From NCBI GenBank assembly GCA_016793775.1, contig JAEULK010000058.1:1-37151 (forward strand): a stretch of DNA of 37,151 nucleotides, read 5' to 3'. How positions within the stretch are numbered: the first letter of the stretch is position 1; every line of letters begins with the position of its first letter. The notes beneath the pieces are model-generated. The model searched no databases. It was not told the origin of the DNA and worked only from the letters and a program-made list of their open reading frames with translations. Source of the stretch: Sphingopyxis sp. (lineage in GTDB: Bacteria; Pseudomonadota; Alphaproteobacteria; Sphingomonadales; Sphingomonadaceae). Both the position numbers and the translations under genes were made by a program. Below, piece after piece: positions 3,747-9,060 of the stretch.

Positions 3747-3761
3747 GTTCTTTTTTTGTTC
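3747..3761 (+). promoter_or_regulatory. LexA (SOS) box upstream of the DNA repair operon
   Basis: A perfect GTTC-N7-GTTC lies here: GTTC at 3747-3750, seven T residues, GTTC at 3758-3761. This is the LexA recognition pattern of alphaproteobacteria. It falls between the stop of the Crp-like gene and the first codon of a four-gene repair operon, about 20 bp before ATG 3782. It predicts LexA repression and DNA-damage induction of the genes at 3782-9060. Confidence 0.8.
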
Positions 3762-3781
3762 CGCATGCTATGCCGGTCGGT

Positions 3782-5032
3782 ATGAGCAGCAAGACGATTC
3801 TCCAGAAGCTCGCGGTGCTGGCGGACGCTGCCAAATATGATGCGTCCTGCGCCTCGTCGGGGACGGTGAAGCGCGATTCCACAGGTACGAAGGGGATCGG
3901 ATCGACCGAGGGCATGGGCATCTGCCACAGCTATGCGCCCGACGGGCGCTGCATCTCGCTGCTGAAAATCCTGCTCACCAATTTCTGCGTCTATGACTGC
4001 CGCTTCTGCATCAACCGCGCGTCGAGCAATGTCGAACGCGCGCGTTTCAGCCCGCAGGATGTCGTCGCGCTGACGCTCGATTTCTACAAGCGCAACTATA
4101 TCGAGGGGCTGTTCCTTTCCTCGGGGATCATCCGATCGGAAGATTATACGATGGAGCAGCTCGTCGAGGTCGCGCGCATCCTGCGCGAGGAGCATCTTTT
4201 CCAGGGCTATATCCATCTCAAGACGATCGCGGGCGCCGACCCCGCGCTGGTCGCGCTCGCGGGGCTCTATGCCGATCGCCTGTCGACCAATGTCGAGCTG
4301 CCGACCAAGGCGGGGCTGGAGAGCTTCGCGCCGGAGAAGAAGCCCGCGACGATCCGCAAGACGATGGCGTCGGTGCGCGTCGGCGCCGAAGATGCGATCG
4401 ACGCCGCCAAAAACAGGCTGATCGGCAAGGCGAAGCCGCCGCGCTTCGCGCCTGCGGGGCAGTCAACGCAGATGATCGTCGGCGCCGACGCGGCGCGCGA
4501 CGACGACATATTGGCGACCGCGGACAATCTCTATTCGGGCTATCACCTGCGCCGCGTCTATTATTCGGCGTACAGCCCGATCCCCGACGCGAGCAGCGCG
4601 CTGCCGCCGGTGCGCCCGCCTTTGATGCGCGAGCATCGGTTGTACCAGGCCGATTGGCTGCTGCGCTTCTATGGCTTCGCGCCGCAAGAGATCATGGAGG
4701 GGGCGAGCGGGGGCATGCTCGACCTCGCGATCGATCCCAAGCTCGCCTGGGCGCTGATGCGGCGCGACATCTTTCCCGTCGATATCAACCGCGCCCCGCG
4801 CGAATTGCTGCTGCGCGTGCCGGGATTGGGCACGCGCGCGGTCGACCGGATCGTCGCGGTGCGGCGCACCGGCAAGCTGCGGCTGGGCGATCTGGCCAAG
4901 CTGACGGCGTCGGTGAAGAAGGTCCTGCCGTTCATCGTGACGCTCGACTGGCGGCCGGGGAAGCTCACCGACAGCGCCGACCTGCGCGCGCGCTTTGCGC
5001 CGCCGGCGGAGCAGCTGGCGCTCGCCCTGTGA
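3782..5032 (+). CDS. Putative DNA modification/repair radical SAM protein (UDG-linked)
   Basis: A 416-aa radical SAM enzyme. The cluster motif CVYDCRFC (C-x3-C-x2-C, about residues 69-76) lies in ILLTNFCVYDCRFCINR and should bind the [4Fe-4S] cluster that cleaves SAM. The N-terminus LAVLADAAKYDASCASSG and the stretch GRCISLLKILLTNF fit the family named for its linkage to uracil-DNA-glycosylase-like genes. A C-terminal helix-hairpin-helix (DINRAPRELLLRVPGLGTR) supports DNA binding. The substrate is unknown. ATG 3782 is preferred; an in-frame ATG at 3770 would add four residues, and neither has a clear ribosome binding site. It is first in an operon with the UdgX fusion 10 bp downstream and follows a LexA box. 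Confidence 0.88.
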   Translation: MSSKTILQKLAVLADAAKYDASCASSGTVKRDSTGTKGIGSTEGMGICHSYAPDGRCISLLKILLTNFCVYDCRFCINRASSNVERARFSPQDVVALTLDFYKRNYIEGLFLSSGIIRSEDYTMEQLVEVARILREEHLFQGYIHLKTIAGADPALVALAGLYADRLSTNVELPTKAGLESFAPEKKPATIRKTMASVRVGAEDAIDAAKNRLIGKAKPPRFAPAGQSTQMIVGADAARDDDILATADNLYSGYHLRRVYYSAYSPIPDASSALPPVRPPLMREHRLYQADWLLRFYGFAPQEIMEGASGGMLDLAIDPKLAWALMRRDIFPVDINRAPRELLLRVPGLGTRAVDRIVAVRRTGKLRLGDLAKLTASVKKVLPFIVTLDWRPGKLTDSADLRARFAPPAEQLALAL

Positions 5033-5042
5033 GGCCCGTTCT

Positions 5043-6470
5043 ATGAAGGAAGTGGTGCTGGAACGGCCGGGCGATTTCGCCGAATGGCGCGGGGTGGCGC
5101 GCGCGCTGCTCGCCGGCGGGGTGGCGCCCGAGGATGTGAGCTGGCGCGGCGGCGAGGAAGGCGCGTCGCTGTTCGGCGATGAGGCGCCGGTGGATGCGGC
5201 GGGCGCGGTGACGCTGCCGCGCGAATTGCTGGCGATGGCGGACCGGGTGATCTGTCATCGCGGCGCCGAAATACCCGCGCGGCTCTATCGCCTCGTCTGG
5301 CGCGCCGCGCGCGAGCGGCAGTTGCTGGCGCGGACGACCGATGCCGACGTCGACTGGCTGCGCAAGACCGACAAGGCGATCCGCCGCGACATTCACAAGA
5401 TGCACGCCTTCGTGCGCTTCCGGCGGCTGGGCGAAGCGGCGGGGCGCGAAAGTTTCGCCGCGTGGTTCGAGCCCGACCACCGCATTTTGCGCCTCACCGC
5501 GCCCTTCTTCCAGCGCCGCTTCTACGGCATGGATTGGGCGATACTCACCCCCGACGCACGCGCCATCTGGCACGACGAGACGCTGAGCTACGGCCCCGGC
5601 GGCACGCGCGGCGAGGTGCCCGAGAGCGATGTCGTCGAGGACCAGTGGCGCACCTATTATGGCGCGATCTTCAACCCCGCGCGGGTCAAGATCGACGCGA
5701 TGCGCGCCGAGATGCCGAAGAAATATTGGCACAATCTGCCCGAAGCGCAGGATATCGCGCCGTTGCTCGCGGGAGCGCGCGCGCGCGTGGAACGGATGCG
5801 CGCGGCCGCCGTTTCGGCTGCGAACCCGCGAACGGAGAAATGGCGCACGCGCGTGGCTGACGACCTGCTTCTCGAAGACGAGCTGACCTCGCTCGGCGCC
5901 GTCGCGCGTGCGGTGGGGCAGTGCACGCGCTGCCCGCTCCACTGCAATGCGACGCAGGCGGTGGCGGGCGAGGGACCGGCGGCGGCGCGGATCATGGTCG
6001 TCGGCGAACAGCCGGGCGATCGGGAGGATCTGCAGGGCCGCCCGTTTGTCGGGCCGGCGGGGCAGGTGCTGGACGCGGCGCTCGACGAAGCGGGGCTCGA
6101 CCGGCGGCGGCTGTTCCTGACCAACGCGGTCAAGCATTTCAAGTTCGAGCCGCGCGGCAAGCGCCGGCTGCACCAGAACCCCACCGCGGGCGAGATCGAC
6201 ATCTGCCGCTGGTGGCTCGACAAGGAGCGCGCGCTGGTGCAGCCCGATTTGATCGTCACGCTGGGCGCGAGCGCTTTGCGCGGGGTGACGGGAAAGAGCG
6301 CGAGCATCAAGTCGATGCGCGGGCAGGTGCACGAATTGGCGGGGGGCACAAAATTGGTCGCGACGATCCACCCCTCCTTCCTGCTGCGCCTGCCCGACCG
6401 GGATCGTGCGGCAGAGGAGCGGGCGGCTTTCGTCGCCGACCTGGCGCGCGCGCGAAAGCTCGCGGCCTGA
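5043..6470 (+). CDS. DUF4130-UdgX fusion: uracil-DNA-crosslinking glycosylase-like protein
   Basis: The 475-aa protein joins an N-terminal DUF4130 domain (about 1-235, unknown role in DNA metabolism) to a family-4-like uracil-DNA glycosylase domain (about 280-470). Candidate Fe-S cysteines are C294, C297, C301 and C388. Motif A is GEQPGDREDLQGRPFVGPAG (321-340), and the C-terminal motif is HPS (443-445). The KRRLH loop at 373-377 is diagnostic of UdgX, whose histidine (here H377) forms a covalent bond with the deoxyribose after uracil excision, trapping the enzyme on DNA. ATG 5043 follows the rSAM stop by 10 bp. A longer frame start at 4995 would overlap the rSAM gene. The two are known neighbours and probably act together, though the joint reaction is unknown. 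Confidence 0.9.
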   Translation: MKEVVLERPGDFAEWRGVARALLAGGVAPEDVSWRGGEEGASLFGDEAPVDAAGAVTLPRELLAMADRVICHRGAEIPARLYRLVWRAARERQLLARTTDADVDWLRKTDKAIRRDIHKMHAFVRFRRLGEAAGRESFAAWFEPDHRILRLTAPFFQRRFYGMDWAILTPDARAIWHDETLSYGPGGTRGEVPESDVVEDQWRTYYGAIFNPARVKIDAMRAEMPKKYWHNLPEAQDIAPLLAGARARVERMRAAAVSAANPRTEKWRTRVADDLLLEDELTSLGAVARAVGQCTRCPLHCNATQAVAGEGPAAARIMVVGEQPGDREDLQGRPFVGPAGQVLDAALDEAGLDRRRLFLTNAVKHFKFEPRGKRRLHQNPTAGEIDICRWWLDKERALVQPDLIVTLGASALRGVTGKSASIKSMRGQVHELAGGTKLVATIHPSFLLRLPDRDRAAEERAAFVADLARARKLAA

Positions 6471-7483
6471 TGGCGAAGGCCAGGACCTGGATCGAACCGC
6501 ATCCGAGCGGCATTTATGTGAAGCCCGCCGATGTGTGGATCGACCCCTCGCGCCCCGTCGAACGCGCCGCCGTCACCCACGGCCATGCCGACCATGCGCG
6601 CAGCGGCCATGGGTCGGTGTTCGCCACCCCCGAAACGCTGGCGATCATGGCGCTGCGCTATGGCGTCGACGCCGAGGCGAGCCACAATGCGGCCTTTCCC
6701 TATGGCGAAGGTTTCGAGCGCGGCGGGGTGCGTTTCAGCTTCCATCCCGCAGGCCATGTGCTGGGCAGCGCGCAGATCCTGATGGAATATGCCGGCGAAA
6801 GGATCGTCGTTACCGGCGATTACAAGCGCCGCGCCGACCCGACGTGCGCGCGCTTCGCGGTGGTGCCGTGCGACATCTTCGTCACCGAGGCGACCTTCGG
6901 CCTGCCGGTGTTCCGCCACCCGCCGACCGAGGGCGAGATCGCCAAGCTGATCGGCGCGGTGCGGGCGGAACCCCAGCGCTCGGTGCTCGTCGGGGCCTAT
7001 GCGCTGGGCAAGGCGCAGCGCGTTATTGCGGAGCTGCGCGAGGCGGGGTGGGATGCGCCGATCTATATCCACGGCGCGCTCGAGAAGATGTGCAACCTCT
7101 ACGCCGTGCATGGCATCGACCTTGGCGAATTGCGGCTGGTTTCAGAGACCGACAAGGCCGAGATGGCGGGGCAGATCGTGCTGGCGCCGCCCTCGGCCCT
7201 GAACGATCGCTGGTCGCGGCGGCTGCCCGATCCGGTCACCGCGATGGCGTCGGGCTGGATGCGCGTGCGCCAGCGGGCGCGGCAGCGGATGGTCGAACTG
7301 CCGCTGGTCATTTCGGACCATGCCGACTGGGACGAACTGACCGCGACGATAATCGACGTGAACCCGAAGGAGACGTGGATCACCCACGGCAGCGAGGACG
7401 GGCTGCTGCGCTGGTGCGAACTGCATCAGCGTAAGGCGCGCGCGCTGCATCTGGTGGGCCGCGACCTGGAGGAGGAATCGTGA
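6470..7483 (+). CDS. Ligase-associated DNA damage response exonuclease (MBL/beta-CASP)
   Basis: The 337-aa protein has the metallo-beta-lactamase signature THGHADHARSGH (ligands H37, H39, D41, H42). Further metal-site motifs are HPAGHVLGS (92-100) and TGDYKR, with ISDHADWDEL and WITHGSEDG near the C-terminus, as in beta-CASP nucleases of the SNM1/CPSF type. Proteins of this type are encoded next to a particular ATP-dependent ligase and are annotated as ligase-associated exonucleases. The start ATG overlaps the UdgX stop by one base (TGATG), and the end overlaps the ligase start by four bases, so all are translationally coupled. Substrate polarity cannot be read from sequence. Confidence 0.88.
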   Translation: MAKARTWIEPHPSGIYVKPADVWIDPSRPVERAAVTHGHADHARSGHGSVFATPETLAIMALRYGVDAEASHNAAFPYGEGFERGGVRFSFHPAGHVLGSAQILMEYAGERIVVTGDYKRRADPTCARFAVVPCDIFVTEATFGLPVFRHPPTEGEIAKLIGAVRAEPQRSVLVGAYALGKAQRVIAELREAGWDAPIYIHGALEKMCNLYAVHGIDLGELRLVSETDKAEMAGQIVLAPPSALNDRWSRRLPDPVTAMASGWMRVRQRARQRMVELPLVISDHADWDELTATIIDVNPKETWITHGSEDGLLRWCELHQRKARALHLVGRDLEEES

Positions 7484-9060
7484 AGCGCTTCGCGGCCCTG
7501 ATCGACCGGCTGATCTACACGCGCTCGCGCAATAGCAAGCTCGCGCTGATCGTCGATTATTTGAAGCACACCCCCGATCCCGACCGCGGCTGGGCGATCG
7601 CCGCGCTGACCGAGAGCCTCGATTTTCCGGCGGTAAAGGCGGGGACGGTGCGAACGCTGCTGGCGACGCGGGTCGACGAGGACTTGTTCCGGCTGTCGCG
7701 GCATTTCGTCGGCGATACGGCGGAGACCGCGGCGCTGCTGTGGCCCGATGCGGCGGGGGCGAAGGACGACCTCAGCGTCAGCCAGGCGGTCGATGCGCTG
7801 GCTTCCGCCACCCGCAGCGACGCCCCCGCCATCGTCGCGTCGCTGCTCGACCGGCTCGACGCCGACGGGCGCTATGCCTTGCTCAAGCTCGCGCTCGGCG
7901 GGATGCGCGTCGGGGTGTCGGCGCGGCTCGCGAAACAGGCCTTCGCTTTGGCGTTCGACGTGCCCGTCGACGATGTCGAGGAGCTGTGGCACGCGATCCC
8001 GCCGCCCTATGCGCCGCTCTTCGCCTGGGGCGAGGGGCGGGCGGAGCGGCCCGACCTCGCCGACGTCGCCTTCTTCCGCCCCTTCATGCTCGCGCATCCG
8101 CTGGAGGAGGAGAGCATCGACCTCGCCGATTATGCCGCCGAATGGAAATGGGACGGCATCCGCGTGCAGATCGTGCGCAGTGGAAAGGGGGGCGGCGGCG
8201 AGACGCGCATCTACAGCCGCGGCGGCGAGGAGATCAGCGGGGCGTTTCCCGAGTTGGTGACGGCCTTCGACCAGGATGCGGTGATCGACGGCGAACTGCT
8301 CGTGCGCGGCGACGCACAGGGCGGGGAGGCGGCGAGCTTCAATGCGTTGCAGCAGCGGTTGGGGCGCAAGGTCGTGTCGAGGAAGATGCTCGCCGATTAC
8401 CCGGCCTTCGTGCGCGTCTATGACCTACTCGGGGTCGATGGCGAGGATCTGCGCGGTTTGCCGTGGAGCGAGCGGCGCGCCAGGCTGGAGGCGTTCGTGC
8501 CGCGCCTCGCCGACAGCCATTTCGACCTGTCGCAGCTGATCGACGCGACCGACTTCGACGACCTTACCGAGCGCCGCGCCGGCGCGCGCGACGCGGCGAT
8601 CGAGGGGGTGATGCTCAAGCGTCGCGATGCGCCCTATGTGGCGGGCCGCCGCGCCGGGCTGTGGTACAAATGGAAACGCGACCCGCTGACCGCCGATTGC
8701 GTCATGATGTATGCGCAGCGCGGCAACGGCCGCCGCGCGAGCTTTTATTCGGATTATACCTTCGGCTGCTGGAGCGAGACGGGCGAGCTGCTGCCGGTCG
8801 GCAAGGCCTATTCGGGTTTCACCGACGAGGAGCTGAAATGGCTCGACAAGTTTGTCCGCGACAACACGCTGAACCGCTTCGGGCCGGTGCGCGAGGTCGA
8901 GAAGTCGCTGGTGCTGGAGGTGGCGTTCGATTCGATCCATGCGTCGAAGCGCCACAAGTCGGGGCTCGCGATGCGCTTTCCGCGCATTTCGCGCATCCGC
9001 CGCGACAAGCCCGCCGAGGAAGCCGACCGTATTGCGACCTTGCTGGCGATGGCGACCTAG
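7480..9060 (+). CDS. ATP-dependent DNA ligase (ligase-associated damage response type)
   Basis: The 526-aa protein has an N-terminal DNA-binding domain (about 1-200), an adenylation domain and an OB-fold (about 420-526). The nucleophile is Lys223 in EWKWDGIR; other motifs are IYSRGGEEI (III-like), DGELLV (IIIa-like), EGVMLKRRDAPY (IV) and GLWYKWKRD (V). It seals nicks using ATP and is additional to the essential NAD-dependent LigA expected elsewhere. The GTG start at 7480 has a strong GGAGGAATC upstream and overlaps the exonuclease stop by four bases. The helicase and PdeM-type phosphoesterase often found with this pair are not adjacent here. The end overlaps the convergent lactate dehydrogenase by four bases. 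Confidence 0.92.
   Translation: MKRFAALIDRLIYTRSRNSKLALIVDYLKHTPDPDRGWAIAALTESLDFPAVKAGTVRTLLATRVDEDLFRLSRHFVGDTAETAALLWPDAAGAKDDLSVSQAVDALASATRSDAPAIVASLLDRLDADGRYALLKLALGGMRVGVSARLAKQAFALAFDVPVDDVEELWHAIPPPYAPLFAWGEGRAERPDLADVAFFRPFMLAHPLEEESIDLADYAAEWKWDGIRVQIVRSGKGGGGETRIYSRGGEEISGAFPELVTAFDQDAVIDGELLVRGDAQGGEAASFNALQQRLGRKVVSRKMLADYPAFVRVYDLLGVDGEDLRGLPWSERRARLEAFVPRLADSHFDLSQLIDATDFDDLTERRAGARDAAIEGVMLKRRDAPYVAGRRAGLWYKWKRDPLTADCVMMYAQRGNGRRASFYSDYTFGCWSETGELLPVGKAYSGFTDEELKWLDKFVRDNTLNRFGPVREVEKSLVLEVAFDSIHASKRHKSGLAMRFPRISRIRRDKPAEEADRIATLLAMAT

What the first reader, a model, noticed from the sequence alone, without database searches (positions are those of the whole stretch)
3747..9060. 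LexA box heading a four-gene repair operon that merges the rSAM-UdgX pair with the ligase-associated exonuclease and ligase
A perfect GTTC-N7-GTTC lies 20 bp before the radical SAM gene, and four genes follow with spacings of 10, -1 and -4 bp. The rSAM/DUF4130-UdgX pair and the exonuclease/ligase pair are each known as separate neighbourhoods of unknown joint function. Here they form one transcription unit with an SOS signature. This suggests a pathway: rSAM chemistry on a damaged base, covalent capture or excision by UdgX, end processing by the MBL exonuclease, and sealing by the ATP ligase.
Basis: partly seen in the sequence, partly recalled or inferred. Interest (0 to 1): 0.75.

Follow-up and report, generated by a model that had tools for sequence, protein, structure and literature searches.

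The report
SOS-controlled four-gene DNA repair operon
In Sphingopyxis-type bacteria, two DNA-repair gene pairs that usually sit apart are joined into one apparent operon behind a conserved switch of the DNA-damage (SOS) response, which links an enzyme family that traps damaged DNA to a nuclease and ligase whose job is still unknown.

Summary
GTTC-N7-GTTC lies at 3747-3761, 20 bp before the rSAM start codon (3782); four genes follow with spacings of +10, -1 and -4 bp: TIGR03916 rSAM, DUF4130-UdgX fusion, TIGR04122 exonuclease, TIGR04120 ligase. The motif alone is not significant in this window (0.77 expected). Comparison settles it: 25 of 25 same-genus relatives that carry the rSAM (of 35 examined) have the box, with invariant half-sites and varying spacer, and the same gene order. 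This genome has the motif before lexA, recA and uvrA. Of 77 named rSAM loci, 72 have a box within 60 bp, against 26 of 21,269 control tiles.

SOS control of the rSAM-UDG pair is already in print. I found no description of its merger with exonuclease-ligase. Further support: two relatives lost rSAM-UdgX but kept the box before exo-ligase; three Sphingorhabdus-type loci have both pairs divergent around one box, with another rSAM lineage; the ligase accompanies the rSAM in 21 of 24 class genomes against 76 of 360 others.

The reaction order is untested, close linkage is rare outside the genus, and exo-ligase often persists without rSAM. New variant of a known kind.

The parts
3747..3761 (+). LexA box GTTC-N7-GTTC (direct repeat, alphaproteobacterial type)
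   Evidence: conserved in 26 of 26 genus loci; same motif before lexA, recA, uvrA in this genome
3782..5032 (+). radical SAM protein, TIGR03916 (rSAM_link_UDG); CxxxCxxC at residue 73 counted from ATG 3770; HhH-like C-terminal segment (below Pfam cut-off)
   Evidence: 545.5 bits, cut-off 343.5; motif; start chosen by comparison with relatives
5043..6470 (+). DUF4130 / TIGR03915 - UdgX (TIGR03914) fusion, 475 aa
5754..6449 (+). UdgX domain (residues 238-469) with motif A GEQPG, R-loop KRRLH (His377, codon 6171-6173), motif B HPS
6470..7483 (+). metallo-beta-lactamase-type ligase-associated exonuclease, TIGR04122, HGHADH at residue 37
   Evidence: 459.8 bits, cut-off 325; motif; the only match in the genome
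7480..9060 (+). ATP-dependent DNA ligase, TIGR04120, KWDG at residue 223
   Evidence: 770.3 bits, cut-off 400; motif

Best explanation
A LexA-repressed SOS operon, conserved in most of the Sphingopyxis-type genomes examined, that co-induces two repair modules: a lesion-capture module (rSAM + DUF4130-UdgX) and an end-processing and sealing module (MBL exonuclease + ATP ligase). Steps: (1) DNA damage loads RecA on ssDNA, LexA is cleaved, and the promoter under the box is freed (inferred from motif conservation and known alphaproteobacterial SOS biology). (2) One mRNA yields all four proteins, coupled by 1- and 4-bp overlaps (anatomy shown; transcript inferred). (3) The UdgX domain removes uracil or a related base and stays covalently attached to the abasic site through His377, capping it (chemistry published for M. 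smegmatis UdgX; residue present here; not tested here). (4) The rSAM with DUF4130 acts on the same or a neighbouring base lesion, or matures the capped site (speculative). (5) The exonuclease trims the strand carrying the lesion or cap, and the ligase seals after gap filling (inferred from families). Likelihoods: LexA control about 0.93; single transcription unit about 0.9; the two modules work on the same lesions about 0.45; this exact order about 0.2. The confidence below is for the statement that the two modules are co-induced by LexA release to act in one damage response.
For: Box in 25 of 25 same-genus rSAM loci and the window, half-sites invariant in 26 of 26, 18 different operator sequences. 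Same four-gene order in 25 of 25; in one (G029) the ligase is cut by a contig end. Named set: 27 loci with rSAM-UdgX-exo co-directional, 27 of 27 with box; 72 of 77 rSAM loci with box within 60 bp against 26 of 21,269 control tiles. The two sets overlap: 13 of the 27 are the same DNA as unnamed loci. This genome's motif set includes lexA, two recA, uvrA and a ribonucleotide reductase large subunit. Low dN/dS in all four genes (0.055-0.161, 4 close relatives). G006 and G027, placed among four-gene strains on the exo tree (supports 84-88), lack rSAM-UdgX but keep the box 60 bp before exo with a 13-codon ORF overlapping the exo start. L149, L163, L169: exo-ligase divergent from rSAM-UdgX around one box, with rSAMs of another lineage (p-AU 5.4e-5). 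Co-occurrence 21 of 24 against 76 of 360 in the class, 68 of 83 against 47 of 314 in the phylum. Seven fetched loci of families f46 and f128 have a box between divergent lhr and exo-ligase.
Against: No expression or binding data. 9 of 35 same-genus relatives keep the ligase without rSAM, 3 of them with exo-ligase and no box near it (G002, G009, G030), so the modules are separable. G004 and G022 keep only the UdgX domain, without box. Outside the genus the modules are mostly far apart: in the class sample, of 21 genomes (own left out) with both, only G390 has them within 20 kb; in the phylum sample, of 68, only G028 (same genus), G390, G749 and G640. Of 35 fetched loci with an exo match (3 of them chosen for linkage), only 6 have a box within 300 bp before exo. 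Co-occurrence is not corrected for phylogeny, and the class and phylum samples share genomes. The AU group was named after seeing the tree. No consensus sigma-70 promoter is recognised. Five of 77 named rSAM loci have no box within 60 bp (one has it at -93), and G037, of another family, has rSAM-UdgX with no box in the fetched stretch.
Confidence: 0.6

Rival explanations
1. Regulatory hitch-hiking: the exo-ligase pair, a general damage-response module, gained SOS induction by lying behind an SOS-controlled rSAM-UdgX pair. Co-induction is real but the two pairs repair different lesions and share no substrate.
For: Modules separable in 9 of 35 relatives; boxes near exo-ligase apart from rSAM in families f46 and f128, so SOS control of exo-ligase does not need UdgX next to it; rSAM-UdgX has a box with no exo-ligase nearby in 42 of 77 named loci.
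Against: Strong co-occurrence of ligase and rSAM across class and phylum although mostly unlinked; two different rSAM lineages came to lie next to exo-ligase.
Confidence: 0.35
2. SOS-induced interstrand-crosslink or platinum-adduct repair: the exonuclease digests past an unhooked crosslink (as SNM1-type MBL nucleases do) and the ligase closes the gap, with UdgX and rSAM dealing with the crosslinked base remnant.
For: NCBIfam names the ligase 'cisplatin damage response' and the exonuclease 'DNA damage response'; sequence similarity of the exonuclease to CPSF73-like nucleases. The SNM1 comparison is recalled.
Against: The origin of the cisplatin name could not be read (paper not held); nothing in the sequence ties UdgX or DUF4130 to crosslinks.
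Confidence: 0.25
3. Chance motif: GTTC-N7-GTTC in an AT-rich intergenic stretch, not a LexA site.
For: 0.77 matches expected in the window; about half of the genome's 82 matches are background.
Against: Conserved at the same place in 26 of 26 genus loci with variable spacer, and within 60 bp in 72 of 77 named loci.
Confidence: 0.02

Closest known systems
SOS-regulated two-gene COG1573-COG4277 (UDG and partner) operon of Bacteroidetes (PMC8565304, passages read; it cites da Rocha 2008 for Alphaproteobacteria and Erill 2016 for Verrucomicrobia, neither held)
   Same: UDG-family gene and the COG4277 partner, which I take to be the rSAM (the equation COG4277 = rSAM is recalled), behind a LexA-type site
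   Different: Two genes there; here exonuclease and ligase are appended to the same unit
LexA-predicted CAC3343-CAC3344 of Clostridium acetobutylicum (PMC3828012, passages read)
   Same: Putative DNA modification/repair rSAM plus one partner behind a LexA site
   Different: Partner of unknown function; no exonuclease or ligase mentioned in the operon
LigB / Lhr helicase / phosphodiesterase / MBL-nuclease operon (PMC10140301, passages read; Ejaz and Shuman 2018 cited there, not held)
   Same: Same kinds of ligase and MBL nuclease
   Different: Here lhr (G000:C49:154096) and the phosphoesterase (G000:C49:140427) lie elsewhere, and exo-ligase is joined to rSAM-UdgX
M. smegmatis UdgX (PMC10359453, abstract and passages read; PDB 6ajo)
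   Different: Here fused behind DUF4130; R-loop KRRLH instead of KRRIH

Membership tests
Alphaproteobacterial LexA (SOS) operon | GTTC-N7-GTTC operator close before the first gene | tested here: met
   3747-3761, 20 bp before ATG 3782; 26 of 26 genus loci
Alphaproteobacterial LexA (SOS) operon | Genome encodes lexA and recA with the same operator | tested here: met
   lexA C96:266615-267283(-) with box at 267324; two recA with boxes
Alphaproteobacterial LexA (SOS) operon | LexA binding and induction by DNA damage | not testable with these tools
   needs gel shift and RNA measurement
UdgX | motif A GEQPG, R-loop ending in the nucleophilic His, motif B HPS | tested here: met
UdgX | covalent complex with uracil-derived abasic DNA | not testable with these tools
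   assay needed
TIGR03916 rSAM linked to UDG | score over curated cut-off and CxxxCxxC cluster motif | tested here: met
   545.5 against 343.5 bits; CVYDCRFC
Ligase-associated four-gene cluster (exo, ligase, Lhr, phosphoesterase) | exo and ligase adjacent | tested here: met
Ligase-associated four-gene cluster (exo, ligase, Lhr, phosphoesterase) | Lhr and phosphoesterase in the same cluster | tested here: not met
   Lhr and phosphoesterase on contig C49, window is C11
Single transcription unit | same strand, short or overlapping junctions, no internal terminator or promoter above chance | tested here: met
   +10, -1, -4 bp; no promoter-like site, 3 terminator-like sites against 3.5 expected, none at a junction
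Single transcription unit | one mRNA across the junctions | not testable with these tools
   RT-PCR or RNA-seq

The most novel reading that the evidence does not exclude
The rSAM/DUF4130-UdgX and exonuclease-ligase families are the two halves of one widespread SOS repair pathway for a base lesion that is first captured covalently (a bacterial, SOS-induced counterpart of covalent abasic-site capping) and then removed with its DNA flank and resealed; Sphingopyxis shows it as one operon, while most genomes carry the halves unlinked.
Probability: 0.3. Interest if true: 0.8.

Novelty: new variant of a known kind. Interest (0 to 1): 0.5.

Why it matters
The role of the bacterial LigB-type ligase operon and the damage it targets are stated to be unknown (PMC10140301, passages read), and what UdgX and its rSAM partner repair is, to my knowledge, open as well. 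A genus in which all four genes form one apparent SOS operon, and natural relatives that have lost one half, make the shared-pathway question directly testable by epistasis in one organism.

Tried and rejected

Rows dropped: one search left out, of 80 named loci, two without an rSAM match and one with the rSAM cut by the contig end (L108, which also has UdgX-exo-ligase). In the co-occurrence counts the window's own genome was removed and only matches over the family cut-off were counted. In one search hits covering under 70% of a query were left out, under 75%. The trees used 48 and 45 chosen rows, not all. Of the genome's 82 motif matches I scanned the neighbourhood of 27: 8 were the loci returned first, 19 were picked by eye mostly for AT-rich spacers, so they are not a random sample; 12 downstream ORFs were given to family searches. 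The lexA site was added by position.

Full report
What is there. The window is contig C11 of an unnamed 3.93 Mb genome. The nearest named relatives of its UdgX protein are Sphingopyxis strains (record titles), so I take it to be a Sphingopyxis or close kin (inference). The box GTTCTTTTTTTGTTC is at 3747-3761. The genes are rSAM 3782-5032 (TIGR03916), DUF4130-UdgX fusion 5043-6470 (TIGR03915 plus TIGR03914), exonuclease 6470-7483 (TIGR04122) and ligase 7480-9060 (TIGR04120), all over their curated cut-offs. The gene after the ligase, an FMN-dependent dehydrogenase, runs the other way.

Is the box real. In the window alone it is not significant: one match, 0.77 expected. In the genome there are 82 matches against 42 for the reversed control pattern. 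I scanned 27 of the 82 sites, not a random sample, and gave 12 downstream ORFs to family searches. They include two recA genes, a uvrA (cut by the stretch end), a ribonucleotide reductase large subunit and a PA0069-family rSAM, plus ImuA-, RmuC- and SbcD-like genes below their cut-offs and an ATPase with KaiC/AAA_25 and LapB-type zinc-ribbon domains (RadA-like, my reading); three (L071, L085, L088) have no clear repair link or no family. Several of the other sites lie before ORFs without an evident repair link. The single lexA match (C96:266615-267283, minus) has a box at 267324-267338. So the genome very probably uses this operator.

Conservation. One search covered 60 genomes: the window's own and 59 relatives, 35 of them of the same genus. 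The rSAM is over the cut-off in 27: own, 25 of the 35 same-genus relatives, and G037 of another family. All 25 have the box right before the rSAM and the order rSAM-UdgX-exo-ligase; in G029 the ligase is cut by a contig end and a second piece lies on another contig. Over the 26 loci including the window the eight half-site bases never vary, whereas the spacer does (18 different 15-mers). A Crp-type regulator lies upstream in the window and four relatives and is not matched upstream in the other 21. G037 has rSAM-UdgX but no perfect box in the fetched stretch.

Wider distribution. A scan of named genomes with the UdgX protein kept the best 80 of 546 related stretches. Of 77 with a usable rSAM match, 72 have a perfect box within 60 bp of the match start, against 26 of 21,269 control tiles from the same loci. 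Without it are L147 (box at -93), L156, L160, L176 and L178. Co-directional rSAM-UdgX-exo occurs in 27, 27 of them with the box; 24 are titled Sphingopyxis, the others Sphingomonadaceae (L105), Alphaproteobacteria (L107) and Sphingomonadales (L123). Thirteen of the 27 are the same DNA as loci of the unnamed set, so the sets are not independent: together they hold 26 + 14 = 40 distinct loci. Another 47 have rSAM-UdgX with no exo-ligase match nearby, and 3 have exo-ligase divergent within 300 bp.

Loss and rearrangement. Of the ten same-genus relatives without rSAM, nine have the ligase; G003 has none. G006 and G027 keep a perfect box 60 bp before exo, and a 13-codon ORF whose stop overlaps the exo start, so promoter and coupling look preserved after loss of rSAM-UdgX; on the exo tree both lie among four-gene strains (supports 84-88, not starred). 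G004 and G022 keep the UdgX domain alone before exo-ligase, with no box, even allowing one mismatch, in the 307 and 400 bp before it; G004's motif A reads GEPPG. G002, G009 and G030 have exo-ligase with no box nearby. G015 and G017 have a ligase at about 65% identity and no exo match in the stretch.

Second arrangement. L149, L163 and L169 (two Sphingomonadales assemblies and a Sphingorhabdus) carry ligase-exo on one strand and rSAM-UdgX on the other, with a single box between them. Their rSAMs fall in a clade of other Sphingomonadales (100*), while the Sphingopyxis rSAM groups with Blastomonas (99*) and next to Hyphomonadaceae and kin (94, not starred). Holding the two together as one clade is rejected (p-AU 5.4e-5, quick tree, group named after seeing the tree). 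Their exonucleases are sister to those of Sphingopyxis (support 87, not starred). Either the two modules came together twice, or the rSAM-UdgX pair was replaced in place; both readings favour a link.

Co-occurrence. With the window's own genome removed and only matches over cut-off counted, 21 of 24 class genomes with the rSAM have the ligase, against 76 of 360 without (Fisher p 5e-11); in the phylum sample 68 of 83 against 47 of 314 (p 1e-30). These are not corrected for phylogeny, and the samples overlap. Against the idea, close linkage is rare: in the class sample only G390 of the 21 has both within 20 kb; in the phylum sample only G028 (same genus), G390, G749 and G640 of 68. Contig breaks could hide some.

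SOS control of exo-ligase elsewhere. Of 40 loci fetched around ligases (3 chosen for linkage, 37 for diversity), 35 had an exo match and 6 of these a box within 300 bp before exo: L186, L188, L205-L208. In a seventh, L187, a box lies 41 bp before the lhr match and 0.7 kb before exo. All seven come from families f46 and f128 and have lhr divergent from exo-ligase; five other loci with that layout (L189, L190, L196, L213, L221) have no box. Hence boxes near this module occur apart from rSAM-UdgX, which also feeds the hitch-hiking rival.

What is known. PMC8565304 (passages) reports LexA-type control of a two-gene COG1573-COG4277 unit in Bacteroidetes and cites earlier reports for Verrucomicrobia and Alphaproteobacteria. 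PMC3828012 (passages) predicts LexA control of an rSAM plus unknown-function pair in Clostridium. PMC3765255 (passages) notes in a legend that DUF4130 is associated with SplB-like rSAM and UDG genes. PMC10140301 (passages) says the role of the LigB operon is unknown. PMC1839093 (passages) lists an ATP-dependent ligase CC3610 in Caulobacter; I did not check its distance from the rSAM pair. No listing or passage from the ten searches that I saw describes the merged operon.

Verdict. The regulatory claim stands; the operon claim stands on anatomy and conservation. The pathway claim is a good hypothesis with independent support but no direct test, and about as likely to be co-induction of separate modules as a single pathway. 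I score interest 0.5: SOS control of rSAM-UDG is already reported, but the tie to exo-ligase and the natural loss series make an old open question testable.

Noticed in passing
G000:C9:354 (L073) and G000:C37:5182 (L080): Two recA genes (both over the TIGR02012 cut-off), each behind a GTTC-N7-GTTC box; a true second recA or a foreign contig in the assembly.
   Followed up: no
L186, L187, L188, L205-L208 (families f46, f128): LexA-type box between divergent lhr and exo-ligase: possible SOS control of the ligase-associated cluster apart from rSAM-UdgX.
   Followed up: partly
L093 and L098 (G006, G027): 13-codon ORF between LexA box and exo whose stop overlaps the exo start, apparently left after loss of rSAM-UdgX.
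   Followed up: partly
L092 (G004) and L097 (G022): UdgX domain alone, without DUF4130 and rSAM, directly before exo-ligase.
   Followed up: partly
G000:C102:21192 (L089) and L097:9302: A short-chain-dehydrogenase-like gene behind a LexA-type box in two genomes of the genus (name by eye).
   Followed up: no
G000:C13:22349 (L075): PA0069-family radical SAM gene 24 bp behind a perfect LexA-type box: a second SOS-type rSAM in this genome.
   Followed up: no
G337:C11, G707:C17, G775:C2 (same genus g87): TIGR04120 ligase match split in two pieces in one open frame near model position 160, suggesting a small insertion in the ligase of that genus.
   Followed up: no
L136 (Sphingopyxis sp. PET50): rSAM with box, but the best UdgX piece ends early and no exo-ligase match follows.
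   Followed up: no
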